Of a stretch of DNA of 64,000 nucleotides, positions 730 to 51,084 are shown piece after piece; positions within the stretch are counted from its first letter, which is position 1; the number at the start of each line of letters is the position of its first letter. The notes under the pieces are model-generated. The model saw nothing but the letters and a program-made list of their open reading frames with translations. It was not told where the DNA came from and made no database searches. The DNA is from Bacteroidales bacterium (lineage in GTDB: Bacteria > Bacteroidota > Bacteroidia > Bacteroidales > UBA932), in NCBI GenBank assembly GCA_016281315.1, contig JAEEIJ010000051.1, positions 1 to 64,000 on the forward strand, written 5' to 3'. The position numbers were made by a program, and so were the translations under genes.

Positions 730-830
730 AGTCATTATTCTTTTGAACCGCTAAATTAACCATTTTTTCCGGAATCGCCAATTCTGCCGCCCGCATCCGC
801 GCCCCCAGGAGCTCAAAATGTTTTTTTTCG

Positions 831-838
831 TACCTTTG
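831..838 (+). promoter_or_regulatory. Bacteroidota -7 box (TACCTTTG) for the U32 peptidase gene
   Basis: TACCTTTG matches the Bacteroidota housekeeping -7 consensus TAnnTTTG and ends 9 bp before the chosen ATG at 848. Its position supports starting the gene at MDRKEL rather than at the upstream ATG at 818, which would lie upstream of the expected transcript start. Confidence 0.6.
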
Positions 839-847
839 CGGATAGGT

Positions 848-2128
848 ATGGACCGCAAAGAGTTGGAAATAATGGCGCCGGCGGGCGGGTTCGACTGCCT
901 GCTGGCCGCGGCCGAAGGCGGGGCCGATTCCGTTTACTTCGGCGTGGGGAAACTCAATATGCGTTCGCATTCGGCCGGAAACTTCACCAAGGAAGACCTG
1001 CCGGAGGTGATGCGCCTTTGCCGCGCCTACGGGATGAGGGGCTACCTCACGCTGAACATCACCCTTTACGATGAGGAGTTGAATGACGCCCGCGAAACCC
1101 TGAAGATGGCCAAAGCCGCAGGGGTGGACGCCGTCATCGCCTCGGATATGGCGGCCATTCTCGCCGCACGTGCCGAAGGCCTGGAGGTACACATCTCCAC
1201 CCAGCTGAGCATCTCCAACGTCGAAGCGCTGAAATTCTATGCGCAGTGGGCCGATGTAGTGGTCCTGGCCCGCGAACTGAACCTCTCGCAGGTGAAAGCC
1301 ATCCACGAGGCCATCGGCCGCGACCATATTTCGGGCCCCTCCGGCCAGCCCGTAAGGATTGAAATGTTCGCCCACGGGGCTTTCTGTATGGCCGTTTCCG
1401 GGAAATGCTACCTGTCTCTTTCCGCCTATGGAGAGAGCGCCAACCGCGGTGAATGCCTCCAGGCCTGCAGGCGGGGCTATCTCCTCACCGACTACGAAAC
1501 CGGCGACGCCATCCACGTAGACAACAAGTACCTGATGTCCCCGAAGGACCTCTGCACCATCGGCTTCCTGGACAGATTCGTGGAGGCGGGCGTGAAAGTC
1601 TTCAAAATCGAAGGCCGTGCCCGCAGCGCGGATTATGTGAAACTCACCGCGGAAAAGTATAGGAAGGCGGCCGATATGGTAGCCGATGGCACCTACACCC
1701 CGGAGAAGGGAGAGGCGCTGAAAACGGACCTCGCCACGGTGTTCAACCGCGGCTTCTGGGACGGCTATTACCTGGGCGCAAAAATGGGCGAATGGAGTGC
1801 CGTCTATGGCAGCCAGGCCACCCGCCGCAAGATTTACGTGGGCTACGTAACCAACTGGTACGCAAAGATCGATGTTGTGGAGGTGCAGGTGGATGCCGTG
1901 CCCCTGCCCAAGGGGGCGGACCTTTTGTTCATCGGCCACAAGACCGGCCTCCTGGAAGTGAAGGCCGATGACCTCCGCGTGGACCTGGTCCAGGCCGATA
2001 TGGCCCCGCAGGGCTGCCGCTGCTCGATCGCCGTCCCCCCGGAAGCTCAGCCGGAGGATAAGCTCAACCCCGGCGAACGCATCCATCCCCGAAAAGGGGA
2101 CAAGGTCTATATCTGGAGCGCCTTGTGA
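848..2128 (+). CDS. U32 family peptidase-like protein (TrhP-like)
   Basis: A 426-residue protein starting MDRKELEIMAPAGG, the usual U32 opening. The U32 signature is visible as EMFAHGAFCMAVSGKCYLS, followed by two more conserved Cys (RGECLQAC); in characterised members such cysteines ligate an Fe-S cluster. The closest functional precedent is TrhP (YegQ), which takes part in prephenate-dependent 5-hydroxyuridine formation at tRNA position 34; single-copy proteins of this length are usually of that type. The ORF-track start at 818 adds 10 residues that overlap the promoter, so I start at 848. The 3' end overlaps the convergent S41 protease gene by 22 bp. Assignment to U32 is firm; the tRNA role is inferred from the family. 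Confidence 0.85.
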   Translation: MDRKELEIMAPAGGFDCLLAAAEGGADSVYFGVGKLNMRSHSAGNFTKEDLPEVMRLCRAYGMRGYLTLNITLYDEELNDARETLKMAKAAGVDAVIASDMAAILAARAEGLEVHISTQLSISNVEALKFYAQWADVVVLARELNLSQVKAIHEAIGRDHISGPSGQPVRIEMFAHGAFCMAVSGKCYLSLSAYGESANRGECLQACRRGYLLTDYETGDAIHVDNKYLMSPKDLCTIGFLDRFVEAGVKVFKIEGRARSADYVKLTAEKYRKAADMVADGTYTPEKGEALKTDLATVFNRGFWDGYYLGAKMGEWSAVYGSQATRRKIYVGYVTNWYAKIDVVEVQVDAVPLPKGADLLFIGHKTGLLEVKADDLRVDLVQADMAPQGCRCSIAVPPEAQPEDKLNPGERIHPRKGDKVYIWSAL

Positions 2129-3699
2129 AGCTGTTCGTCGTAACGCAGACGAACCTTGATGCCGGCTTCCTGGAAGTAATACCGCACCACGATTTCCTCT
2201 TCGATGAAGGGGATGATTTCATCCTTTTTCAGCCGCAGGAAGGTTTCCTTGTCCATTTCCAGTGACTTTTGCAGGGCGTCCAGTTCGGCCTCCATCACCT
2301 CGGTGAGTCCATCCTCTTCGAGGTGCTTTTTCATCTCGTCGAAGAAGGCGCGGGCGCTGGAGCGGTAGTCGAATTTCTTATCGGCCGCGAAGGCGATGAA
2401 GTCGTCATAATCCACAAAGTGGAAGTCCTCCACGGCGGGGATGCTTTCGTGCCCACGCACGTAATTCAGCGCATATTGTTCCACGATGCCGCTGTAAACC
2501 AGCGAATACGTGAGGCGGGAATACTTGTGGGCCTTCACCTCCACGTCCGGGGTGATGCCGCCGCCGTCCTTCACCGTTCGGCCGCCGGCCGTGGTGAAGC
2601 TGTGCGTGAGCGAGTCCGGAATAGCGCCTACGCTGCCGTCCTCGTTGCGGTGGGAGTAGTCGATGGCCTGGACGCATCGGCCCGAAGGCGTATAATACTT
2701 GGCTGTCGTCACTTTGAGCTGGCCGTTATAAGGCAGCGGACGGATGCTCTGGACGAGGCCCTTCCCGAAGGTGCGCGTGCCGGCGATGGTGGCGCGGTCG
2801 TAGTCCTGCAGGGCGCCGGAGACGATCTCCGAGGCCGATGCACTCCCGCTGTCCACGAGCACCAGAATGGGGAGCTCCGTGTCCACGGGATCCGACGTGG
2901 TTTTGTAGGTAGTATTGCTGCCGGCCGACCGGCCTTTAGCGGTAACGACCACCGAACCTTTCGGCACGAAGAGGCTCACGATATTCACCGCTTCGCCCAG
3001 CAGGCCGCCGCCGTTGCCGCGTAAATCCAGCACCAGGCGCTGCATCCCCTGTTTTTTCAGTTTGCCGATGGCGTCCCGGATGCCCTGGCTCACGCCTTCG
3101 GTGAACTTGTCCAGAAGCACGTAGCCGTCTTTGTCGTTGAGCATTCCCACGTAGGAGATGGAGGGCAGCTGGATGCGCTCGCGGGTAACCTTTACTTCCA
3201 CGGGTTCGGCTTGACGCAACTTTTTCACCCGAAACACCACGGTGGTGCCGGGCTTGCCGCGCATTTTTTCCGAACTCTCCTGGCTGGTGAGGCCGTGGGT
3301 GCTCTCGCCGTCGATGGACTCGATCTCATCGCCGCATTTGAGGCCCGCCTTTGCAGCCGGGGAGTTGGCGTAGGGCTCGTTGATGATCACGTTCCCGTCT
3401 TTGTCGGGTTTGTAAATGATGGCGCCGATGCCCCCGTAGGTATTGGACAACATCATCTGGAAATCTTCCTGCTCTTCTTCGGGCACGTATATGGTATAAG
3501 GATCCAGCGATTCCAGCATGGCGTCCACGGCTTCCCGCTGGATGCGGCCCACTTCCAGGGAATCCACATACGAACGGTTCAGCTCCTTCAGGATGGCGTT
3601 ATGCACCTCCACCCATTTCCCCAGGGTGAAGTTTTTGGACTGCGCCGCAGCGCTCAGAGTGACCGCCAGGGCGGCCACGGCAACAAAGAAACGTTTCAT
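2107..3699 (-). CDS. S41 family C-terminal processing protease with PDZ domain
   Basis: A 530-residue periplasmic serine protease. It has a Sec signal peptide (MKRFFVAVAALAVTLSAAAQ), a PDZ segment (GGIGAIIYKPD to PVEVKVTRE), and the S41 catalytic core: SGSASASEIVSGAL with the candidate nucleophile Ser near residue 286, and FGKGLVQ with the general-base Lys near 313. This Ser/Lys arrangement is typical of CtpA/Prc-type tail proteases that trim or degrade envelope proteins. The ORF track starts 44 residues earlier, but that extension is translation of the palindromic repeat at 3740-3841 and lies upstream of the TACCTTTG promoter box, so MKRFF is the start. It is a single-gene unit convergent with the U32 gene. 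Confidence 0.92.
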   Translation of the reverse strand: MKRFFVAVAALAVTLSAAAQSKNFTLGKWVEVHNAILKELNRSYVDSLEVGRIQREAVDAMLESLDPYTIYVPEEEQEDFQMMLSNTYGGIGAIIYKPDKDGNVIINEPYANSPAAKAGLKCGDEIESIDGESTHGLTSQESSEKMRGKPGTTVVFRVKKLRQAEPVEVKVTRERIQLPSISYVGMLNDKDGYVLLDKFTEGVSQGIRDAIGKLKKQGMQRLVLDLRGNGGGLLGEAVNIVSLFVPKGSVVVTAKGRSAGSNTTYKTTSDPVDTELPILVLVDSGSASASEIVSGALQDYDRATIAGTRTFGKGLVQSIRPLPYNGQLKVTTAKYYTPSGRCVQAIDYSHRNEDGSVGAIPDSLTHSFTTAGGRTVKDGGGITPDVEVKAHKYSRLTYSLVYSGIVEQYALNYVRGHESIPAVEDFHFVDYDDFIAFAADKKFDYRSSARAFFDEMKKHLEEDGLTEVMEAELDALQKSLEMDKETFLRLKKDEIIPFIEEEIVVRYYFQEAGIKVRLRYDEQLHKALQI

Positions 3700-3706
3700 A
3701 TGCTGA

Positions 3707-3714
3707 CAAAGGTA
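3707..3714 (-). promoter_or_regulatory. -7 box (TACCTTTG) for the S41 protease gene
   Basis: On the minus strand TACCTTTG lies 7 bp upstream of the ATG at 3699. This implies a very short leader and excludes the longer ORF-track start. Confidence 0.6.
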
Positions 3715-3739
3715 CAAAAAAAGCACCAAACGCTCCCCT

Positions 3740-3841
3740 GGTGGGTGAGTTTCGACAAAATCCCGCCTTTTTGTCCATTTTGAGCCACCGGTGGTGGCCG
3801 CGTTTTGACAAATTGCGGGGTTTTTGTCCATTTTGGGCTCC
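3740..3841. repeat. REP/BIME-like double-hairpin repeat, copy 1
   Basis: Two tandem units share the core TTTYGACAAA...TTTTTGTCCATTTTG. Unit a holds a perfect 7-bp stem GACAAAA/TTTTGTC around an 8-nt loop containing TCCCGCC. Unit b holds GACAAA/TTTGTC around a loop containing GCGGGG, so the two loops are complementary (CCCGC against GCGGG). The units meet at the palindrome CCACCGGTGG. The copy begins 41 bp upstream of the S41 gene and ends 25 bp past the RAYT stop. A second copy in the same orientation lies on the other side of the RAYT gene. Confidence 0.8.
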
Positions 3842-3866
3842 TAGGGCGTGGATGAAGGCGGCATCC

Positions 3867-4781
3867 CTATCGCAATTCTTTTGCGTTCAGCAGTTGCTGC
3901 ACAATCTCCTTCTTAATATAAATGGAGGTAGATATCTGGTAGGGATTCAGGCCGAACTCCCGGTTCAGAATGATGGCCAGTTTCCCCTTTTCCGTATCGG
4001 TCATACTCCTCAACGAGCGGCCTTCGAACCGCTTTTGGAGGGTCTGGGACACAATACTTTCCGTCTCTTCCTTATTGAAACGGGCCAGTTCTCCCAGGCG
4101 GCCCGCAATCTGATACTGCACCTCATAGTCTTTTACCAGCGCCGTCTGCAGGTCTTTGGCGGTGGGAAACAGGTCCAGTACCACGGAAGTATCCACAAAT
4201 GCATCCGGAAGCAGGCCCAGATAAGGGTGAAGACGCCAGTGAGAAGGTATTTCATCGGTGCCGCCAAGCAACTGAATCAATTGGCGCCTCGTGTATTTCC
4301 GGGCAGGATCAGCATTCAGCAGCTCGCAGAAACCCGAATGGTACAGCCATCCGGAGCTCCAGAGATAGCCTCCCACGATGCCCAGGTCTTCTTCCAGCGC
4401 ATTGCGCAGAACATATAGGATTTCACCCCGCATCTTTTCGGGCGTTTCAATCCTTTCCATAGCAAACCAGTAATCCTCCGGAAGCGGCCGGAACCCGTCT
4501 TTTCTAAGGCGGGCCGACAACTTCCGTCTCAGGAAATCGAAGGCCTCGAGACAATCCTCCCCCGTTCCGCTAAGGATAATATGAATGTGGTTGGGCATCA
4601 GCGTAAAAGCATATATCCGCAATGAGTGCCGGAGGCTGATGAGCCCCATCAGGATCATTCCGAAAGCATATTCTGCCGTATTATTGAAAAGTTTTCCGCC
4701 TTTCCAACCGTCCGTACAGAAATGGTAATATCCCTTACCCAGGGCACGCATTGCGAGTCGTTCTTTTTCCCTGTTTGTCAT
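3867..4781 (-). CDS. REP-associated tyrosine transposase (RAYT, Y1/HUH type)
   Basis: A 304-residue Y1-transposase-like protein. LMPNHIHIIL carries the HUH metal-binding pair (His65, His67). The catalytic tyrosine is most likely Tyr123 in ILYVLRNALEEDLG, matching the 'Y-x-x-x-N' segment of RAYTs. The C-terminal third (YQISTSIYIKKEIVQQLL) looks like a helix-turn-helix DNA-binding tail. RAYTs are domesticated single-strand transposases that process palindromic REP sequences. Here the gene is bracketed by two copies of a double-hairpin repeat, which strongly supports the assignment. I start at MTNREKERLAMRALG; the ORF track's 27 extra N-terminal residues lack family character. The gene has no partner transposition gene and its codon use resembles its neighbours. 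Confidence 0.85.
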   Translation of the reverse strand: MTNREKERLAMRALGKGYYHFCTDGWKGGKLFNNTAEYAFGMILMGLISLRHSLRIYAFTLMPNHIHIILSGTGEDCLEAFDFLRRKLSARLRKDGFRPLPEDYWFAMERIETPEKMRGEILYVLRNALEEDLGIVGGYLWSSGWLYHSGFCELLNADPARKYTRRQLIQLLGGTDEIPSHWRLHPYLGLLPDAFVDTSVVLDLFPTAKDLQTALVKDYEVQYQIAGRLGELARFNKEETESIVSQTLQKRFEGRSLRSMTDTEKGKLAIILNREFGLNPYQISTSIYIKKEIVQQLLNAKELR

Positions 4782-4805
4782 ATGGCAAAGGACGGAACAT
4801 TTATC

Positions 4806-4826
4806 CGTTTCAACAAAAATGAAACG
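4806..4826. promoter_or_regulatory. Inverted repeat CGTTTCA-N7-TGAAACG upstream of the RAYT gene
   Basis: A perfect 7-bp inverted repeat around ACAAAAA lies 25 bp upstream of the RAYT start. It is a candidate operator or leader hairpin. No function can be read from it, and it is unrelated to the REP-like units. Confidence 0.35.
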
Positions 4827-4926
4827 CTTAATTAACAAAATCCCTTCTTGACAACGCTCCACGTTCGTTTTCCCGTTTAAGATAAACCCGTTTCAGCGCC
4901 CAAAACCGTGCCCATCCTGAATCACT

Positions 4927-5020
4927 GGTGGGTGAGTTTCGACAGAATCCCGCCTTTTTGTCCATTTTGGGCCACCGGCGGTGGGTGAGTTTCGACAAAT
5001 TGCGGGGTTTTTGCCAATTT
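4927..5020. repeat. REP/BIME-like double-hairpin repeat, copy 2
   Basis: Same order and orientation as copy 1: GGTGGGTGAGTTTCGACA, the TCCCGCC-loop unit, a palindromic junction CCACCG-G-CGGTGG, then the GCGGGG-loop unit. The first stem carries one change (GACAGAA), and the last unit ends TTTTTGCCAATTTT instead of TTTTTGTCCATTTT. The copy ends 4 bp before the -7 box of rnr, so its final unit lies within the rnr promoter region. Confidence 0.8.
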
Positions 5021-5024
5021 TCAC

Positions 5025-5032
5025 TAACTTTG
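5025..5032 (+). promoter_or_regulatory. -7 box (TAACTTTG) for rnr
   Basis: TAACTTTG lies 19 bp upstream of the rnr ATG. The REP-like copy 2 ends immediately upstream, so any -33 element of this promoter is made of repeat sequence. Confidence 0.6.
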
Positions 5033-5051
5033 TGTCATAAACCACCCCCTT

Positions 5052-7184
5052 ATGTCCAAACGCAAGAACAGCCCCAACCGGAAAAACCATAAGAAGCACC
5101 GTGTGATTCCCGAATATGAGGGAAAGGTCCTGATGTCCCGCGAGGGATACATTTTCGTGCGGGTGGAGGGCCAGGAGGACGACATTTTCGTAAAGGCCTC
5201 CAAAACCCGCGGCGCCCTGCACGGGGATACGGTGCGGGTAGCGGTGACGCAGGAGAAAGTGGGACTGGCCAAGCGGCGCAGCGGCGAGGTGATCGCCGTT
5301 CTGGAGCGCTCCGACAAACCTTTCGTGGGCATCCTCCACATCGTGGGGAAACAGGCCTGGGTGCTGATGTCTTCCAAGACGATGCCCTACGACATCGCCG
5401 TGCCGGTGCCGGAAGGCGGGCAGCGCGGGATGAAGGTGGCGGCCGTGGTGGACGGCTGGGAGCGGGGCGCCGCCGGCCCGTACGGCCACGTGGTGGACGT
5501 GCTGGGAATGCCCGGCGAGAACGAAACCGAGATGCACGCCATCCTGGCGGAATTCGGCCTGCCCTATCGCTTCGAAAAGAACGTGGAGAATGCGGCCGAT
5601 ACCATCCCGGACACCATTACGGACGAGGACAGGGCTCATAGGCGGGATTTCCGGAAGGTGCTCACCTTCACCATCGACCCCACGGACGCCAAGGACTACG
5701 ACGACGCTCTCAGTTTCCGCAAACTCGACAATGGGAATTACGAGGTGGGCGTTCACATTGCCGATGTCACCTGGTACGTGCGTCCGGACACCCCGGTGGA
5801 CCGGGAGGCCCAGGCCCGCGGCACCTCCGTTTACCTGGTGGACCGCACCGTGCCGATGCTGCCGGAGAAACTCTCCAACAAGCTGTGCTCCCTAAGGCCC
5901 CACGAGGAGAAACTCACCTTCAGCGCAGTCTTTGAAATCACGCCCCAGGCCAAGGTCTTCAACCCCTGGTTCGGCCGCACGCATATCATTTCGGACTACC
6001 GATTCGACTACGAACTGGCGCAGCAGATCATCGACGCCGGCCCCAAGGCCCTGGAGCAGGAACTGGGCGAAGGCAGCGAATGCGGGATCGTACCGAACGA
6101 AATAAAAGAAGCCATCCTCACCCTCAACGACCTGGCCCTGAAGCTGCGCAAAAAGCGTTTCGCCGCCGGCGCCGTAAACTTCGAGCGGCCGGAAATGAAG
6201 GTGGAGGTGGACGAGACCGGAAAGCCCGTCTCCGTTCACCAGAAGTTCTCCAAGGAGGCCAACTGGCTCATCGAGGAGTTTATGCTGCTGGCCAACCGGA
6301 ACGTGGCCGAATACGTGGCCACCGACGGCAAGATGAACGGCAAGGGCCAGGCCAAGGCGAAGACCTTCGTCTACCGCGTGCACGACCTCCCGAACCCGGA
6401 CAAGTTGCACGGCCTGAGGGATTTCGTCGGCCACTTCGGCTATAAGATCGGGCCGATGGAAGGCGGCGAGGCGGCCCGGAGCCTGAACGAGCTGATGGCA
6501 TCGGCCGAAGGAAAACCGGAACTCCCCGCCATCCAGATCCTCGCTCTACGGGCGATGGCCAAGGCCTGCTACTCGACGGACAACATCGGCCATTACGGAC
6601 TCGCTTTCGACTTCTACACGCACTTCACCTCGCCCATCCGGCGCTACCCGGATATGATGGTGCACCGCCTGCTGGCCCGCTATCTCAAAGGCGGCGACAG
6701 CGCCAACGCGGATTTCTACGCCCTCCAGTGCAAGCACGCCTCCGAACGGGAGGTGGTGGCCGCCGAGGCCGAACGCGAAAGCATCAAGTACAAGCTGGTG
6801 GAGTTTATGCAGGACAAGATCGGCCAGGAATTTGACGGCCACATCTCCGGCATCACCGAATGGGGCATCTACGTGGAGATCGAGCCCACCAAGATCGAGG
6901 GAATGGTCCCTTACCGCACCATCCGCAGCGACTACTACATCTACGACGAGGAACGCTACCGGGCCGTGGGCCGGCGCACGCACCAAAGCCTGCGGCTGGG
7001 TGATGCAGTGCGCATCCGCGTGAAGGACACTTCCCTGGAGCAGAAACTCCTGGACTACGAACTGGTGGAAGACCTGCCCGCCGCTCCCGCGGAAGCTACG
7101 GAAGAGAATCCCGAGGAAGAAATGGAACGGGCGATGGCCCGGCGGGAACACCGGCCGCGGAAAGCGTCCGGGAAAAAACGCTAA
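5052..7184 (+). CDS. rnr: Ribonuclease R (VacB/RNB family 3'-5' exoribonuclease)
   Basis: A 710-residue processive exoribonuclease that degrades structured RNA. A basic N-terminus (MSKRKNSPNRKNHKKH) precedes cold-shock-type OB folds. The RNB catalytic domain starts around residue 200 with FTIDPTDAKDYDDALS, whose Asp cluster binds the catalytic metals, and contains HFTSPIRRYPDMMVHR. An S1 domain starts near residue 593 (GHISGITEWGIYVEIE). The C-terminus is acidic and then basic (RREHRPRKASGKKR), common in RNase R. It is preceded by its own -7 box and overlaps the convergent downstream gene by 4 bp. Confidence 0.95.
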   Translation: MSKRKNSPNRKNHKKHRVIPEYEGKVLMSREGYIFVRVEGQEDDIFVKASKTRGALHGDTVRVAVTQEKVGLAKRRSGEVIAVLERSDKPFVGILHIVGKQAWVLMSSKTMPYDIAVPVPEGGQRGMKVAAVVDGWERGAAGPYGHVVDVLGMPGENETEMHAILAEFGLPYRFEKNVENAADTIPDTITDEDRAHRRDFRKVLTFTIDPTDAKDYDDALSFRKLDNGNYEVGVHIADVTWYVRPDTPVDREAQARGTSVYLVDRTVPMLPEKLSNKLCSLRPHEEKLTFSAVFEITPQAKVFNPWFGRTHIISDYRFDYELAQQIIDAGPKALEQELGEGSECGIVPNEIKEAILTLNDLALKLRKKRFAAGAVNFERPEMKVEVDETGKPVSVHQKFSKEANWLIEEFMLLANRNVAEYVATDGKMNGKGQAKAKTFVYRVHDLPNPDKLHGLRDFVGHFGYKIGPMEGGEAARSLNELMASAEGKPELPAIQILALRAMAKACYSTDNIGHYGLAFDFYTHFTSPIRRYPDMMVHRLLARYLKGGDSANADFYALQCKHASEREVVAAEAERESIKYKLVEFMQDKIGQEFDGHISGITEWGIYVEIEPTKIEGMVPYRTIRSDYYIYDEERYRAVGRRTHQSLRLGDAVRIRVKDTSLEQKLLDYELVEDLPAAPAEATEENPEEEMERAMARREHRPRKASGKKR

Positions 7185-8317
7185 ATCAGCGAAATCAGCA
7201 GATACAGGAAATGGGCGATGACCCCGGCGCAGAGACCTGCGACGGCGTGGGCGCCGATGGCCTTAGAGATGACCTTGCGGTAACCCAGGCTGTCCAGCAT
7301 AGCGGTGTGGGTGGAAAGGAAACCGCTCCAACACATTCCGATGGCGGTGAACACCGCAATGGCGTTGCCGTCCAGGATGCCGGCTCCGTTGAAGGTGGGA
7401 AGCAGGCCCAGGGCCGCGCCCACGGCGCCGAGGGCGGTCATCGGGAAGGCGATGAGGCGCATATCGGAGAAGCCGAAGAGCCATTCGAAGACCCAGTGGA
7501 TTTTGTCGGCCAGCCAGGTGAGGACGGGAACGCCCTGGAAGGCCGATCCGTCATACCCGGAAGGGCCGGCGCCGAAGGTGACCATAATGACGGCGGTGGT
7601 GATAATCAGCACGCCCGGAATGATCTGGAGGCCTAGTTCCACGCCGTTCTTGCCGCCGTCCAGCACCGCATTCAGGAAACGCATAAAGATGCTGTCCTTC
7701 TTCTCGGATTCCTTCGTGATGGGACCCTCGTCTTCGGCCACCTCTTTCAGCACGGGGCTGTCCAGCTCAGGATAGGCCTTGAGGCAGCTGCGCTGCATAA
7801 TGCGGGTGGAGATGATGGAGCCGCAGAAGGCGCCGAACAGGCCCACCAGCGCGCCGGTCACCTGGCCGTAGCCGATCATCGTGACGATGACCACGAACCC
7901 CATTCCGAACGCCGTCCCGAAGTTGGTGAGCGAAATGAGCTGGTATTTCTTGAAATAGCCCGCGAAATTACGGTCCTTGGACAGGGCGATGATGGCCGGG
8001 TTGTCGCTTAAGAAAGTCATCACGGCTCCCAGCGCCGCCACGCCCGGAAGGTTGTAGAGCGGCTTCATCATCGGCCGGAGGAAACGCTCCAGCAGGTTCA
8101 CCACGCCGAACTCCGACATCAGCTTGGACAGCGCGCCCGTGAGCACGGTGATGCCCATCAGGTAGAAGACGGTGTTCAGCAGGAGGTCGTGGGCCGTGTT
8201 CATCACGGTCTTGATCATATTGCCTCCGCCCATCCGCACGCCCAGCAGGACGAAAACGAGGACCAGGACGGAGAGGAAGACCAGGGCTTCCACCGTAGTG
8301 CGACGCGGTTTTCTCAT
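7181..8317 (-). CDS. Nucleoside-recognition (Gate) domain membrane protein
   Basis: A 378-residue polytopic inner-membrane protein of the 'nucleoside recognition/Gate' superfamily, similar to the group annotated CD0519/CD1768. It has an N-terminal helix (VEALVFLSVLVLVFVLLGV), helices around SDNPAIIALSKDRNFAGYF and NFGTAFGMGFVVIVTMIGYG, and a second gate repeat around LGLLPTFNGAGILDGNAIAVF. A transport role is assumed for the superfamily but the substrate is unknown. It stands alone, convergent with rnr, with a TACCTTTG box directly upstream. Confidence 0.7.
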   Translation of the reverse strand: MRKPRRTTVEALVFLSVLVLVFVLLGVRMGGGNMIKTVMNTAHDLLLNTVFYLMGITVLTGALSKLMSEFGVVNLLERFLRPMMKPLYNLPGVAALGAVMTFLSDNPAIIALSKDRNFAGYFKKYQLISLTNFGTAFGMGFVVIVTMIGYGQVTGALVGLFGAFCGSIISTRIMQRSCLKAYPELDSPVLKEVAEDEGPITKESEKKDSIFMRFLNAVLDGGKNGVELGLQIIPGVLIITTAVIMVTFGAGPSGYDGSAFQGVPVLTWLADKIHWVFEWLFGFSDMRLIAFPMTALGAVGAALGLLPTFNGAGILDGNAIAVFTAIGMCWSGFLSTHTAMLDSLGYRKVISKAIGAHAVAGLCAGVIAHFLYLLISLI

Positions 8318-8325
8318 AGCAACGA

Positions 8326-8333
8326 CAAAGGTA
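8326..8333 (-). promoter_or_regulatory. -7 box (TACCTTTG) for the Gate-domain gene
   Basis: Minus-strand TACCTTTG lies 8 bp upstream of the ATG at 8317, in the 21-bp gap after the recO stop. This suggests separate transcription from rdgB-recO. Confidence 0.55.
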
Positions 8334-8338
8334 CGAAA

Positions 8339-8983
8339 TTATCGGTACAATTCCCGCAGGACGGCGAGGGATTTCACCTGGATGTTTGCGTCGGTGTGGA
8401 AGGAGAGGTATTTCAGGAGCGCCTCGCAGAGGGCGTTCCTGGCGGCTCCGGTGAGCGGGATGAGCATACTGGCCGAGAAATCCGGGCCGATGAATTCCTT
8501 CAGGGCCGGGAACTGATCCCCGGCGAAAGGCGCGATGTCCTCCGCGGACGGGCGGAAACCCAGGGCGCCGGCGAGTTCCACCAGCCAGCGCACGGGGAAA
8601 TTGGCGTAATCGGCCTCCAGGGCGTTCAGGGTGAGGACGCTGCCCACGCACCAGTCGTAGAGGCCGTCCTCCACGGCGCCGTCCCTGACGGTGCGAAGCA
8701 GCACTTCCGAAAGGAAAAGGGTCATTGTATTCTTGCGGAGGTCTCCGCGCACGTTCGTCAGGCCCTCTTTCAGGCTGATGCCGCGCAGGGTCCAGAGCTC
8801 GCTTTTGGGGTTTTCAATGACGTCCGCTTCAAGGATGTTCAGTGGCAGGAACAGCGTGGTGCCGGTCTTCCGGGCGCTGCGCACCAGGAAGCCCTTCCGC
8901 CCCCATTCGCGGGAGAGGGTGTGCACCACCAGGGCGTTGTCGCCCACCTTCGTGGTGGCCAGGACCAGCAGTTCGCTTGTCAT
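8339..8983 (-). CDS. recO: DNA repair protein RecO
   Basis: A 214-residue RecO. It opens with the family N-terminal OB fold (LLVLATTKVGDNALVVHTLSREWGRKGFLVRSARK) followed by the helical region (FLSEVLLRTVRDGAVEDGLYDW). RecO anneals SSB-coated DNA and loads RecA with RecR. No zinc-binding Cys cluster is seen, as in many Bacteroidota RecO. The start codon overlaps the rdgB stop as ATGA, so the two are translationally coupled and probably cotranscribed. Confidence 0.88.
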   Translation of the reverse strand: MTSELLVLATTKVGDNALVVHTLSREWGRKGFLVRSARKTGTTLFLPLNILEADVIENPKSELWTLRGISLKEGLTNVRGDLRKNTMTLFLSEVLLRTVRDGAVEDGLYDWCVGSVLTLNALEADYANFPVRWLVELAGALGFRPSAEDIAPFAGDQFPALKEFIGPDFSASMLIPLTGAARNALCEALLKYLSFHTDANIQVKSLAVLRELYR

Positions 8984-9558
8984 CCTTTAAGGAACTGAGC
9001 CATCTTACGGAGCGCCTTCCCACGGTGGGAAATGGCGTTTTTCACTTCTTCCCCCAGTTCGGCATTGGTCTGGGCGAACCCTTCAGGAATAAAGATGGGA
9101 TCGTAGCCGAAACCGCCCGAACCCGCTTTCTCGTGGCCGATGCGCCCTTCCATCACGCCGTCGAAAAAGTGCGGCTCGCCGCCCAGGATGAGCGTGACGC
9201 AGGTGCGGAAGCGCGCCGAGCGGGGCTCGCCGCCCCGGAGCGCCATTTCGTCGAGGAGTTTGGCGATGTTCTTCGCCGGTTCCTTGGAAGGGCCGGCATA
9301 CCGGGCCGTTTCCACGCCGGGGGCGCCGTCCAGTAAGTCTACTTCCAGGCCGGAATCATCGGCAAAACAGTCCATCCCGGTGCGCTCATAGATGTACTGC
9401 GCCTTCTGGAGGGAGTTTTCTTTCAGCGTGGAGCCCGTTTCGGGGATGTCTTCCGTAACGCCCAGGCTGGCGGCGGTCACGATTTGAATCCCGTCGCCCA
9501 GGATTTCCTGTGCCTCCCGGATTTTCCCGGGATTGCCGGTTGCGAATACCAGTTTCAT
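8980..9558 (-). CDS. rdgB: XTP/dITP diphosphatase (HAM1/RdgB family)
   Basis: A 192-residue nucleotide-pool sanitising enzyme that hydrolyses XTP and dITP. Motifs: MKLVFATGNPGKIREA at the start, FADDSGLEVDLLDGAPGVETARYAG, SGGFGYDPIFIPEG, and the C-terminal SHRGKALRKM. The ORF-track version starts 21 residues earlier, across the promoter box at 9565-9572; MKLVFATGNPGK is the conserved family start. First gene of the rdgB-recO pair, divergent from the polyprenyl synthetase gene. Confidence 0.93.
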   Translation of the reverse strand: MKLVFATGNPGKIREAQEILGDGIQIVTAASLGVTEDIPETGSTLKENSLQKAQYIYERTGMDCFADDSGLEVDLLDGAPGVETARYAGPSKEPAKNIAKLLDEMALRGGEPRSARFRTCVTLILGGEPHFFDGVMEGRIGHEKAGSGGFGYDPIFIPEGFAQTNAELGEEVKNAISHRGKALRKMAQFLKG

Positions 9559-9564
9559 AACGCA

Positions 9565-9572
9565 CAAAGATA
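9565..9572 (-). promoter_or_regulatory. -7 box (TATCTTTG) for rdgB-recO
   Basis: Minus-strand TATCTTTG is 6 bp upstream of the rdgB ATG. It is back-to-back with the plus-strand box at 9596. Confidence 0.6.
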
Positions 9573-9595
9573 CAAATTTATTCCGCCATTTTTTG

Positions 9596-9603
9596 TATAT
9601 TTG
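9596..9603 (+). promoter_or_regulatory. -7 box (TATATTTG) for the polyprenyl synthetase operon
   Basis: TATATTTG lies 20 bp upstream of the ATG at 9624 and forms a divergent promoter pair with that of rdgB. Confidence 0.6.
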
Positions 9604-9623
9604 CGAAGATATAGAGACCACGA

Positions 9624-10589
9624 ATGATTGCAGACACTATATTGGACCAGGCCGTAAAGGATCTGTTCGACGGCATCCGGTTCCAGGAAGGACCCGAGGG
9701 ACTGTATGACCCGCTGCGGTATATGATCGCCATCGGGGGGAAAAGGATCAGGCCGCGTTTGTGCCTGACCACCTACAGCATCTACAAACAGGCGCTCACG
9801 GAGGAGATCCTGCAGCCTGCGGCCGGCCTGGAAGTATTCCACACCTTCACCCTCATCCACGACGACATTATGGACCACAGTCCCCTGCGGCGGGGAAACC
9901 CCACCGTATGGAAGAAGTGGAGCGAAGACACCGCCATCCTGAGCGGGGACGTGATGAGCATCGATGCCTACAAACGCATCGCACAGGCGCCGGCCAGCAT
10001 TCTGCCCGAAGTACTGCAGCTGTTTTCCAAAACGGCTTCGGAGGTCTGCGACGGCCAGCAGCTGGATATGGACTTTGAAAAAAGAAACATCGTCCGGATG
10101 TCCGAATATATGCAGATGATCGGTCTCAAGACCGGCGTCCTTATCGCCTGCGCCGCCCGGATGGGGGCGCTCATCGGCGGGGCTTCCCGGGAAAGCCAGC
10201 AGCATCTGTACGACTATGGTTATCTCCTGGGCCTCGCCTTCCAGGTGGCCGATGACTACCTGGATGCCTACGGCGACGAGAAAGTGTTCGGCAAGCCCAT
10301 CGGCGGAGACATCCTGAACGGAAAGAAATCCTGGCTCACGGTGCGGGCCGTCGAATTGGGCGCAAAGGGGCTGGAAGAGGCCCTGGCGGACAACACCGCT
10401 GCGCCGGAAGAAAAAATCGCGCTCGTAAAGGCGCTCTATAACAGCGTAGGGGTGGCCGAAGAAGCCCGCAAGACCATCGGCGAACTCTCCGCGCAGGCCA
10501 TCGGCAAAGCCCGGGAGGCCGCCCTTCCCGAGGGCGGGCTGGAAGCCCTCGAACACTTCGCCCACGCCCTGGTGGGCCGCGTCAAATAG
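9624..10589 (+). CDS. Polyprenyl diphosphate synthase (trans-prenyltransferase)
   Basis: A 321-residue all-alpha prenyltransferase that condenses isopentenyl diphosphate onto allylic primers. GGKRIRP, the first Asp-rich motif DDIMD with its RRG follow-up (SPLRRGNPT), and the second motif DDYLD are all intact. It is one of two such enzymes in the window (the other is at 61558-62532). Chain length cannot be set from sequence; the more divergent FARM region fits the farnesyl/geranylgeranyl type. It heads a tight run with the beta-galactosidase and patatin genes. Confidence 0.88.
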   Translation: MIADTILDQAVKDLFDGIRFQEGPEGLYDPLRYMIAIGGKRIRPRLCLTTYSIYKQALTEEILQPAAGLEVFHTFTLIHDDIMDHSPLRRGNPTVWKKWSEDTAILSGDVMSIDAYKRIAQAPASILPEVLQLFSKTASEVCDGQQLDMDFEKRNIVRMSEYMQMIGLKTGVLIACAARMGALIGGASRESQQHLYDYGYLLGLAFQVADDYLDAYGDEKVFGKPIGGDILNGKKSWLTVRAVELGAKGLEEALADNTAAPEEKIALVKALYNSVGVAEEARKTIGELSAQAIGKAREAALPEGGLEALEHFAHALVGRVK

Positions 10590-49707: not shown

Positions 49708-51084
49708 TCAGTTGTTTTTAGCAGCTTCGGCGGCCGCTTTCGCGGCGGCGGCACGGGCCCGGATGGCCCCCAGGACGGCGCCTTTCCCCTGCCGGATGAT
49801 ATCCAGCAGCGGAATGTGCGCGGGACAGGAATACAGGCAGCAGCCGCATTCGATGCAGTCCTGCGCCGCATTGGCTTCCAACGCCTCCAGGTCCATATTC
49901 CGGGAAAGTTTGTTCAGCAGGAAGGGTTCCAGGCCCATCGGGCAGGCATCCGCGCACTTGCCGCAGCGGATGCAGTGGCTTTCAGGGGCGCGGCGCGTCT
50001 GGGCCGCCGTAAGGAAGAGCAGGGCGCCCGTTCCCTTCACGGTGGCGGCGTCCAGGTTCGCTACCGCACGGCCCATCATCGGCCCGCCGCTGATGATCTT
50101 GGCGGCATCGGCCGGTACACCGCCCAGATAGTCCACGATGTAGCGCAGGGGCGTTCCCACGCGCACCAGGAGGTTGGCCTGGCGGGGGAAGCACTCGCCC
50201 GTGACGGTGACCGAGTTGTCCACGATGGGCTTGTTCTTCTGGACGGCGTCGTACACGGCCAGGGCTGTGGCGACGTTCTGCACCACGGCGCCCACGCTGA
50301 TGGGAAGGGCGCCGGAGCCCACCTGGCGGTGCATCACCGCGTCGATGAGCTGCTTTTCGCCGCCCTGCGGGTAGCGCATTTTCATCGGCATCACCTCGAT
50401 ACCCTCATAGCCCAGTCGGGCGATGACTTCCTTGATGTGGGCGATGGCCTCGGGCTTGTTTTCCTCGATGGCGACGGTGCATGGGACGTTCCCCATCACC
50501 TGCTTCAGGATGGCGGCGCCGACGACCACCTGCTCGCCCTTTTCCAGCAGGGTGCGGAAATCGGAGGTGAGATAGGGCTCGCATTCGCAGCCGTTGATGA
50601 TGACGCGCTCGCACTTCGAGCCCGGAGGCGGGCTCAGTTTCACGTGCGTGGGGAAGGTGGCGCCGCCCAGACCGACGACACCGCCCTGGCGGATTTTCTC
50701 AATGATGGCCTTGTTGTCTTCGGGAATCTTCGTGACAAGCGTATCGCCGGTGTCGATTCCCTCCAGCCACTCGTCGCCCTCCACCTCGATCTCGATGTGG
50801 GTGGCGGGACGGCCGGCTAAATCGGCCCTGGGGCCGATGGATTTCACGGTTCCGCTCACGGAGGAATGGATGAAGGCGCTCACGAAGCCGCCCGGCTCCG
50901 CAATCACCTGTCCCACCTTCACTTTGTCTCCCACCTGCACGCAGGGCACGCTGGGCGCGCCGATGTGCTGGGCTACGGAGATGTAAACGACGGGCGCAAG
51001 GGGCAGCGGCTCGATGGCGCACCCTCTGGAAATCTTGCTGTCGTGGGGATGAACGCCCCCGATGGAGAATGTATGCTTACCCAT
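49708..51084 (-). CDS. rnfC: RnfC, NADH-side flavin/Fe-S subunit
   Basis: A 458-residue peripheral subunit that exchanges electrons with NAD. Contains the NuoF-like NAD/FMN-binding core (GGVVGLGGATFPTHVKL; NGCECEPYLTSDFRTLLEKGE) and two [4Fe-4S] motifs CIRCGKCADACPMG and CIECGCCLYSCPAHIP. The Ala-rich tail RARAAAAKAAAEAAKNN is short compared with enterobacterial RnfC. Overlaps rnfB by 8 bp. Confidence 0.95.
   Translation of the reverse strand: MGKHTFSIGGVHPHDSKISRGCAIEPLPLAPVVYISVAQHIGAPSVPCVQVGDKVKVGQVIAEPGGFVSAFIHSSVSGTVKSIGPRADLAGRPATHIEIEVEGDEWLEGIDTGDTLVTKIPEDNKAIIEKIRQGGVVGLGGATFPTHVKLSPPPGSKCERVIINGCECEPYLTSDFRTLLEKGEQVVVGAAILKQVMGNVPCTVAIEENKPEAIAHIKEVIARLGYEGIEVMPMKMRYPQGGEKQLIDAVMHRQVGSGALPISVGAVVQNVATALAVYDAVQKNKPIVDNSVTVTGECFPRQANLLVRVGTPLRYIVDYLGGVPADAAKIISGGPMMGRAVANLDAATVKGTGALLFLTAAQTRRAPESHCIRCGKCADACPMGLEPFLLNKLSRNMDLEALEANAAQDCIECGCCLYSCPAHIPLLDIIRQGKGAVLGAIRARAAAAKAAAEAAKNN

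What the first reader, a model, noticed from the sequence alone, without database searches (positions are those of the whole stretch)
3740..5020. RAYT gene bracketed by two copies of a paired-hairpin repeat with complementary loops
The HUH-type transposase (MPNHIHIIL, Tyr123) lies between two approximately 95-bp repeats in the same orientation. Each repeat has two tandem hairpins with nearly identical stems (GACAAA/TTTGTC) and flanks, but one loop contains TCCCGCC and the other GCGGGG. The loops can pair, so the unit could fold as two hairpins or as one large cruciform about the CCACCGGTGG centre. In known REP/BIME systems the two REPs are inverted copies; here the flanks are direct and only the loops are inverted, an unusual design.
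Basis: partly seen in the sequence, partly recalled or inferred. Interest (0 to 1): 0.8.

Follow-up and report, generated by a model that had tools for sequence, protein, structure and literature searches.

The report
Long RAYT bracketed by hairpin doublets
A single-strand-DNA-cutting enzyme gene of a gut Bacteroidales bacterium sits between two copies of a paired-hairpin repeat that it probably moves; this is a lineage-specific variant of the known RAYT/REP system rather than a new kind of element.

Summary
A 97-bp unit of two tandem hairpins lies on both sides of a RAYT-like HUH gene, in the same orientation and 91% identical. The gene runs 4781-3867 on the minus strand (304 aa; catalytic Tyr123). 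The protein core folds like E. coli RAYT, and both HUH histidines, the tyrosine and the Asn four residues after it are invariant in 45 relatives. It also carries a helical C-terminal extension of about 150 aa that full-length profile hits show only in its own genus.

The arrangement recurs. Of 56 loci of this long-RAYT family, 26 carry a gene-specific flank-to-flank repeat of 33 nt or more (21 direct, 5 inverted), against 2 of 663 mismatched pairs. Paired units beside RAYT genes are tandem direct, whereas known REPs and REPINs are inverted. Stems differ from gene to gene; a G/C loop core between A- and T-runs recurs.

Copy number is low: two copies plus one 73%-identical orphan doublet here, about 10 in some relatives, none in eight RAYT-less genomes.

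The complementary loops are real but peculiar to this family and not clearly beyond chance; the two-fold alternative was already proposed for REPINs. Verdict: new variant of a known kind (REPtron). A possible role as inversion breakpoints is suggestive only.

The parts
3738..3834 (+). Hairpin doublet copy 1 (3' side of the RAYT gene)
   Evidence: 97-nt direct repeat; z-score -3.3/-4.0 as one large hairpin
3740..3789 (+). Unit 1 of copy 1: outer stem GGTGG/CCACC, inner stem GACAAAA/TTTTGTC, loop with TCCCGCC
3790..3834 (+). Unit 2 of copy 1: inner stem GACAAA/TTTGTC, loop with TGCGGGG; right outer arm degenerate
3867..4781 (-). Long RAYT-like HUH (Y1) gene, 304 aa from ATG at 4781 (longest ORF 3867-4862): His65, His67, Tyr123, Asn127, with a lineage-specific C-terminal extension of about 150 aa carrying a predicted helix-turn-helix
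4806..4826 (-). Inverted repeat CGTTTCA-TTTTTGT-TGAAACG just upstream of the RAYT ATG; candidate operator
   Evidence: GTTTCA..TGAAA motif upstream of 25 of 63 family members vs 1.7 in shuffles
4925..5021 (+). Hairpin doublet copy 2 (5' side of the RAYT gene, between RAYT and rnr)
   Evidence: 91% identical to copy 1, same orientation
4927..4976 (+). Unit 1 of copy 2
4980..5021 (+). Unit 2 of copy 2 (starts with the same GGTGGGTGAGTTTCGACA as unit 1)

Best explanation
The locus is a REPtron of a long-RAYT lineage. The HUH/Tyr enzyme recognises its own family of two-tier hairpins (outer stem, symmetric internal loop, inner stem, A-run/GC-core/T-run loop) when the DNA is single-stranded, for example behind the replication fork. 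It cuts next to a hairpin pair through a 5'-phosphotyrosine and re-joins strands, so that doublets of about 90-100 nt are copied or moved at low frequency. The doublets on both sides of the gene are its resident substrates; orphan doublets elsewhere are non-autonomous copies. Shown: the fold and catalytic residues, the doublets, recurrence across the family, gene-specific sequences, low-copy orphans with the same boundaries. Inferred: single-strand recognition, cleavage, and RAYT-dependent copying.
For: HUH core: best structural hit is RAYT 4er8; 38 of 45 relatives match NCBIfam REP_Tyr_transpos, though weakly. H92, H94, Y150 and N154 are invariant in 45 sequences. Flank-to-flank repeats of 33 nt or more occur in 26 of 56 loci vs 2 of 663 mismatched pairs. 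In G021, eight doublets share 90-bp boundaries within 1 nt. Fourteen cognate doublets gave 78 matches, all in the owner genome. Flank similarity tracks protein identity: 28 of 29 pairs at 70% identity or more, 16 of 378 at 40-49%, 4 of 810 at 20-29%. Loop core: CGGC or GCCG in 26 of 98 loops vs 7.4 in shuffles, maximum 13. Short RAYTs elsewhere in the order are also mostly bracketed by palindromes.
Against: Copy number in the window's own genome is very low (2 flanking + 1 diverged orphan), unlike classical REPs with more than 100 copies. Thirty of 56 loci gave no clear flank-to-flank repeat with this method. The owner-genome specificity is confounded by the lack of intergenic conservation between species. 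No empty site was found and no activity was tested. The MAG is 87.5% complete in 97 contigs, so repeat copies may be missing.
Confidence: 0.72

Rival explanations
1. The gene plus its flanking doublets is itself a mobile insertion sequence (IS200/IS605-like), the doublets being its left and right ends, and orphan doublets are deletion scars left by recombination between the two direct copies.
For: Doublets at both ends, 91% identical; the neighbours S41 protease and RNase R do not flank any of the related RAYTs fetched; recombination between direct doublets would leave a solo doublet.
Against: No near-identical second copy of the gene in the genome; paralogs are 43%, 41% and 21% identical with different hairpins. 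IS200-type elements average 4.8 copies at 99.4% identity (PMC6006769, Table 1). No match in plasmids or phages. Close orthologs (80% identity or more) keep their position.
Confidence: 0.12
2. The doublets are primarily sites of DNA inversion: inverted copies around and between core genes recombine, directly through RAYT or by homologous recombination, and reshuffle the chromosome.
For: In six related loci (L110-L113, L115, L116) blocks carrying aroK-like, recJ-like, birA-like and parC-like genes are inverted or rearranged relative to each other, mostly with ~100-150-nt inverted doublet arrays at the block ends. In the window the rnr-spm-recO-xtp block is inverted relative to the S41-xtp order of G019 and G003, with the RAYT and its doublets at one breakpoint; G019 has an orphan doublet between recO and rnr.
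Against: The other window breakpoint has no doublet. MAG assemblies can misjoin at ~100-nt repeats. Any repeat can serve as a breakpoint.
Confidence: 0.1
3. A domesticated RAYT whose flanking hairpins act in cis, as terminators, mRNA stabilisers or autoregulatory sites, with no present mobility.
For: Low copy number; C-terminal helix-turn-helix signals; an operator-like inverted repeat in front of the gene.
Against: Orphan doublets occur far from RAYT genes with the same boundaries; the catalytic residues are invariant.
Confidence: 0.06

Closest known systems
RAYT/REP (REPtron), Nunvar 2010 (PMC2817692), Quentin 2018 (PMC6006769), TnpAREP biochemistry (PMC8266576)
   Same: HUH/Tyr Y1 core; gene flanked by its own hairpin family; hairpin sequence tracks the protein; several RAYTs per genome, each with its own hairpins.
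   Different: About 150-aa C-terminal extension; [quoted passage not shown] few dispersed copies; GT[AG]G foot not general.
REPIN, Bertels and Rainey 2011 (PMC3116915)
   Same: The doublet is the unit that disperses; about 90-100 nt; can fold as two hairpins or as one large hairpin.
   Different: In REPINs the two REPs are inverted; here the RAYT-flanking units are direct, with inverted arrangement seen in some orphans only.
TnpAY1 subclass 2.6 of Bacteroidetes (PMC6006769)
   Same: Bacteroidetes; genes flanked by atypical hairpins without the GT[AG]G consensus; copies found elsewhere in the genome. Short RAYTs of about 190 aa in this order, flanked by palindromes, look like this subclass.
   Different: Subclass 2.6 median is 179 aa; the window protein is 304 aa. 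The long subclasses 2.1 and 2.3 have no REPs.
IS200/IS605 transposons
   Same: Y1 HUH catalytic core and subterminal hairpins.
   Different: No multiple near-identical copies; the flanking doublets are near-identical to each other; extra C-terminal domain.

Membership tests
RAYT (TnpAREP) | HUH motif plus single catalytic Tyr with Asn four residues on | tested here: met
   H92, H94, Y150, N154 invariant in 45 members; fold hit 4er8
RAYT (TnpAREP) | Passes a curated family model (NCBIfam REP_Tyr_transpos, cut-off 80 bits; Pfam Y1_Tnp, cut-off 23 bits) | tested here: not met
   20.8 bits and 13.5 bits: homologous but divergent
RAYT (TnpAREP) | Gene flanked on both sides by its own hairpin repeats | tested here: met
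   recurs in 26 of 56 relatives
RAYT (TnpAREP) | The two flanking REPs are in inverted orientation (Nunvar 2010) | tested here: not met
   Direct in the window and in 21 of 26 relatives
RAYT (TnpAREP) | Cognate hairpins dispersed in high copy number | tested here: not met
   One 73%-identical orphan in own genome; up to about 10 in relatives; MAG incomplete
RAYT (TnpAREP) | GT[AG]G guide tetranucleotide at the hairpin foot | tested here: inconclusive
   GGTGG heads the window units, but as part of the outer stem; not seen in the unit sequences of other family members that were read. Absence is also known for subclass 2.6
RAYT (TnpAREP) | Single-strand cleavage and strand transfer at cognate REP | not testable with these tools
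   needs purified protein
REPIN | Doublet, not the single hairpin, is the dispersing unit | tested here: met
   Eight copies in G021 with the same 90-bp limits; G034 also has single hairpins, so not universal
REPIN | The two REPs of a doublet are inverted | tested here: not met
   Window doublets direct 76/74% vs inverted 58/58%; all RAYT-flank doublets tested direct; orphans mixed
IS200/IS605 element | Several near-identical genomic copies of the transposase | tested here: not met
   Paralogs 43%, 41%, 21%

The most novel reading that the evidence does not exclude
In this Bacteroidales lineage the expanded long RAYTs and their doublet arrays drive ongoing inversion of core-gene blocks: doublets are RAYT-cut or RAYT-promoted recombination sites at which segments flip, and the C-terminal helix-turn-helix domain couples hairpin recognition to autoregulation at the GTTTCA/TGAAAC operator.
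Probability: 0.1. Interest if true: 0.75.

Novelty: new variant of a known kind. Interest (0 to 1): 0.5.

Why it matters
RAYT/REP systems were defined mostly in proteobacteria, with inverted, high-copy REPs. Here a single Bacteroidales genus holds a large, diversified RAYT family whose hairpin sequences differ from gene to gene while the layout stays constant. In-genome paralogs and orthologs at 60-90% identity give a natural series for testing enzyme-hairpin co-evolution, which features (stems, loop core, spacing, orientation) are recognised, and what a C-terminal extension adds. The possible link to chromosomal inversions would be of wider interest if confirmed with long reads.

Tried and rejected
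Direct empty-site test: no genome examined has the S41 protease next to rnr without the RAYT, so the limits of any insertion could not be read. Inverted loops as a family rule: rejected, since loops are direct in most RAYT-flank doublets. Doublet at the second inversion breakpoint of the window: none seen at 9540-9900; the accompanying whole-window scan is uninformative, because it was too strict to find even the known doublets. Plasmid or phage carriage: no match. Identity of the C-terminal domain by fold search: nothing significant, only weak helix-turn-helix and sigma-region-4-like hits. Taxon name: not resolved beyond Bacteroidales; the named relatives are mostly MAGs whose isolate names give ruminant gut sources, and a literature search on their names found nothing.

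Full report
WHAT IS THERE. The window lies in a 2.1-Mb draft genome (97 contigs, 87.5% complete). Between an S41-type peptidase gene (ending 3699, minus strand; named from its sequence) and an RNase R-type gene (from 5052, plus strand) lies an ORF on the minus strand flanked by two 97-nt repeats, 3738-3834 and 4925-5021, 91% identical and in the same orientation. Each repeat holds two hairpins: GACAAAATCCCGCCTTTTTGTC and GACAAATTGCGGGGTTTTTGTC (one mismatch each in copy 2), neither expected by chance. Reading outward, unit 1 has a second stem GGTGG/CCACC separated by a symmetric internal loop, so it is a two-tier hairpin of 50 nt.

THE PROTEIN. The longest ORF has 331 codons. Matches to Pfam Y1_Tnp (13.5 bits) and NCBIfam REP_Tyr_transpos (20.8 bits) are below cut-off, but 38 of 45 relatives also match the latter. 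Both histidines, the tyrosine and the asparagine four residues after it are invariant in 45 relatives. AlphaFold2 gives a confident model (pLDDT 88) whose best match among solved structures is the E. coli RAYT bound to a REP hairpin, 4er8. The C-terminal extension of about 150 aa is all-helical at its end, with weak helix-turn-helix signals. A profile search of 198 genomes of the order finds this extension only in the same genus; elsewhere matches stop after the HUH core, in ORFs mostly of about 190-250 aa.

RECURRENCE. A search with the protein found relatives in 50 of 61 genomes of the genus and in none of 40 from elsewhere in the order; 35 named loci came from a species-level genome collection, about 30 of them full relatives in Bacteroidales MAGs. 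Of 56 non-redundant loci, 26 have a flank-to-flank repeat of at least 33 nt (21 direct, 5 inverted); mismatched flank pairs gave 2 of 663. The repeats differ completely in sequence between genes but keep the plan: hairpins in tandem at about 50-nt spacing. In all RAYT-flanking doublets compared, the two units are more alike directly than inverted; orphans are mixed. Flank similarity falls with protein identity: 28 of 29 pairs at 70% identity or more, 19 of 83 at 60-69%, 16 of 378 at 40-49%, 4 of 810 at 20-29%. Part of this is simple shared descent of the locus. Loops share a form, A-run, G/C core (often CGGC or GGCC), T-run: CGGC or GCCG in 26 of 98 against 7.4 expected.

COPIES ELSEWHERE. A tolerant search of the own genome finds the two flanking copies and one orphan doublet (C1:11711-11794, 73%), between what read as a guanylate kinase-like and a nadD-like gene, in inverted arrangement. 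Fourteen cognate doublets from 12 genomes, searched in those 12 and in eight genomes without a RAYT hit, gave 78 matches, every one in the doublet's own genome. Orphans number about 10 in G034, 6-7 in G021, three each in G028 and G045, one each in G001 and G000. In G021 eight copies have the same 90-bp limits, which marks the doublet as the moving unit; in G034 single hairpins also occur. Most orphans look intergenic; at least two (L178, L185) lie within a long open frame. Genomic counts are lower bounds because short-read MAGs lose repeats. The owner-genome pattern is expected in part simply because intergenic DNA is not conserved between these species.

THE LOOPS. In the window the loops are complementary (CCCGC/GCGGG), and the large single hairpin is favoured by about 5 kcal/mol over two hairpins in both copies, significantly so against shuffles only for copy 1. 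All three doublets of the window's family keep this, as do several G021 orphans, but most RAYT-flank doublets have loops in the same orientation and gain nothing from the large fold. A loop can be inverted by exchange between the arms of its own palindromic stem, so no special design is needed (inference). The two alternative folds were already discussed for REPINs (PMC3116915, legend of fig. S11).

REARRANGEMENTS. In loci L110-L113, L115 and L116 the RAYT, an aroK-like gene and neighbouring genes resembling recJ, birA and parC occur in different orders and orientations, with inverted doublet arrays of about 100-150 nt at most block ends. In the window the block rnr-spm-recO-xtp is inverted relative to the S41-xtp order of G019 and G003, with the RAYT and doublets at one breakpoint; G019 has an orphan doublet between recO and rnr. 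The second window breakpoint has none. This is suggestive and needs long reads.

COMPARISON. Nunvar 2010 (PMC2817692) defines RAYTs as always flanked by two inverted REPs that are abundant in the genome; Quentin 2018 (PMC6006769) describes a Bacteroidetes subclass (2.6, median 179 aa) with atypical hairpins, and long subclasses without REPs. Short RAYTs of other families in this order proved mostly to be flanked by palindromes too, so the window system is best read as the long branch of the Bacteroidales RAYTs. It works like a REPtron; it does not meet two features of the classical definition (inverted flanks, high copy number).

VERDICT. Observation confirmed; interpretation partly supported; new variant of a known kind. 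Mobility and recognition by this enzyme are inferred, not shown.

Noticed in passing
window 4806-4826; 25 of 63 family loci: An inverted repeat GTTTCA..TGAAAC lies just in front of many RAYT genes (1.7 expected in shuffles); a candidate operator, perhaps bound by the C-terminal domain.
   Followed up: partly
L110-L113, L115, L116 (contigs of RUG11406, Tb.RUG.384, RUG478, RUG722, RGIG7900, UBA4230): Blocks of core genes (aroK-, recJ-, birA-, parC-like) around the RAYT are inverted or reordered between related species, with inverted hairpin arrays at most block ends.
   Followed up: partly
window 818-9558 versus L188 (G019) and L191 (G003): Gene order around rnr, spm, recO, xtp, S41 and the U32-like peptidase is scrambled between species of the genus; the RAYT sits at one breakpoint in the window.
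   Followed up: partly
G019 (32 copies), G028 (19), G003 (9), G005 (7); none in G000: A separate dispersed palindrome GTCATGCCCGG(N3-12)CCGGGCATCT behaves like a higher-copy REP in some species of the genus; its mobiliser is unknown.
   Followed up: partly
L178 (G000:C72:49400-50700), about 50000-50084 of the contig; L185 (G001:C4): Orphan doublets that lie inside long open frames without breaking them; the first is a tandem-direct doublet of the L006 family.
   Followed up: no
L008 upstream; L098 and L099 flanks: A different short palindrome, TGGACCAGGTCCA, recurs next to several RAYT genes.
   Followed up: no
L167-L176 (G034): Orphan hairpins of G034 share a common 3' neighbourhood (GTCGGGCGGTCGCCTGCGGGCAGGGG...GGTACGCCCCTTCGGGGCTATC), suggesting they sit in a larger composite intergenic repeat.
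   Followed up: no
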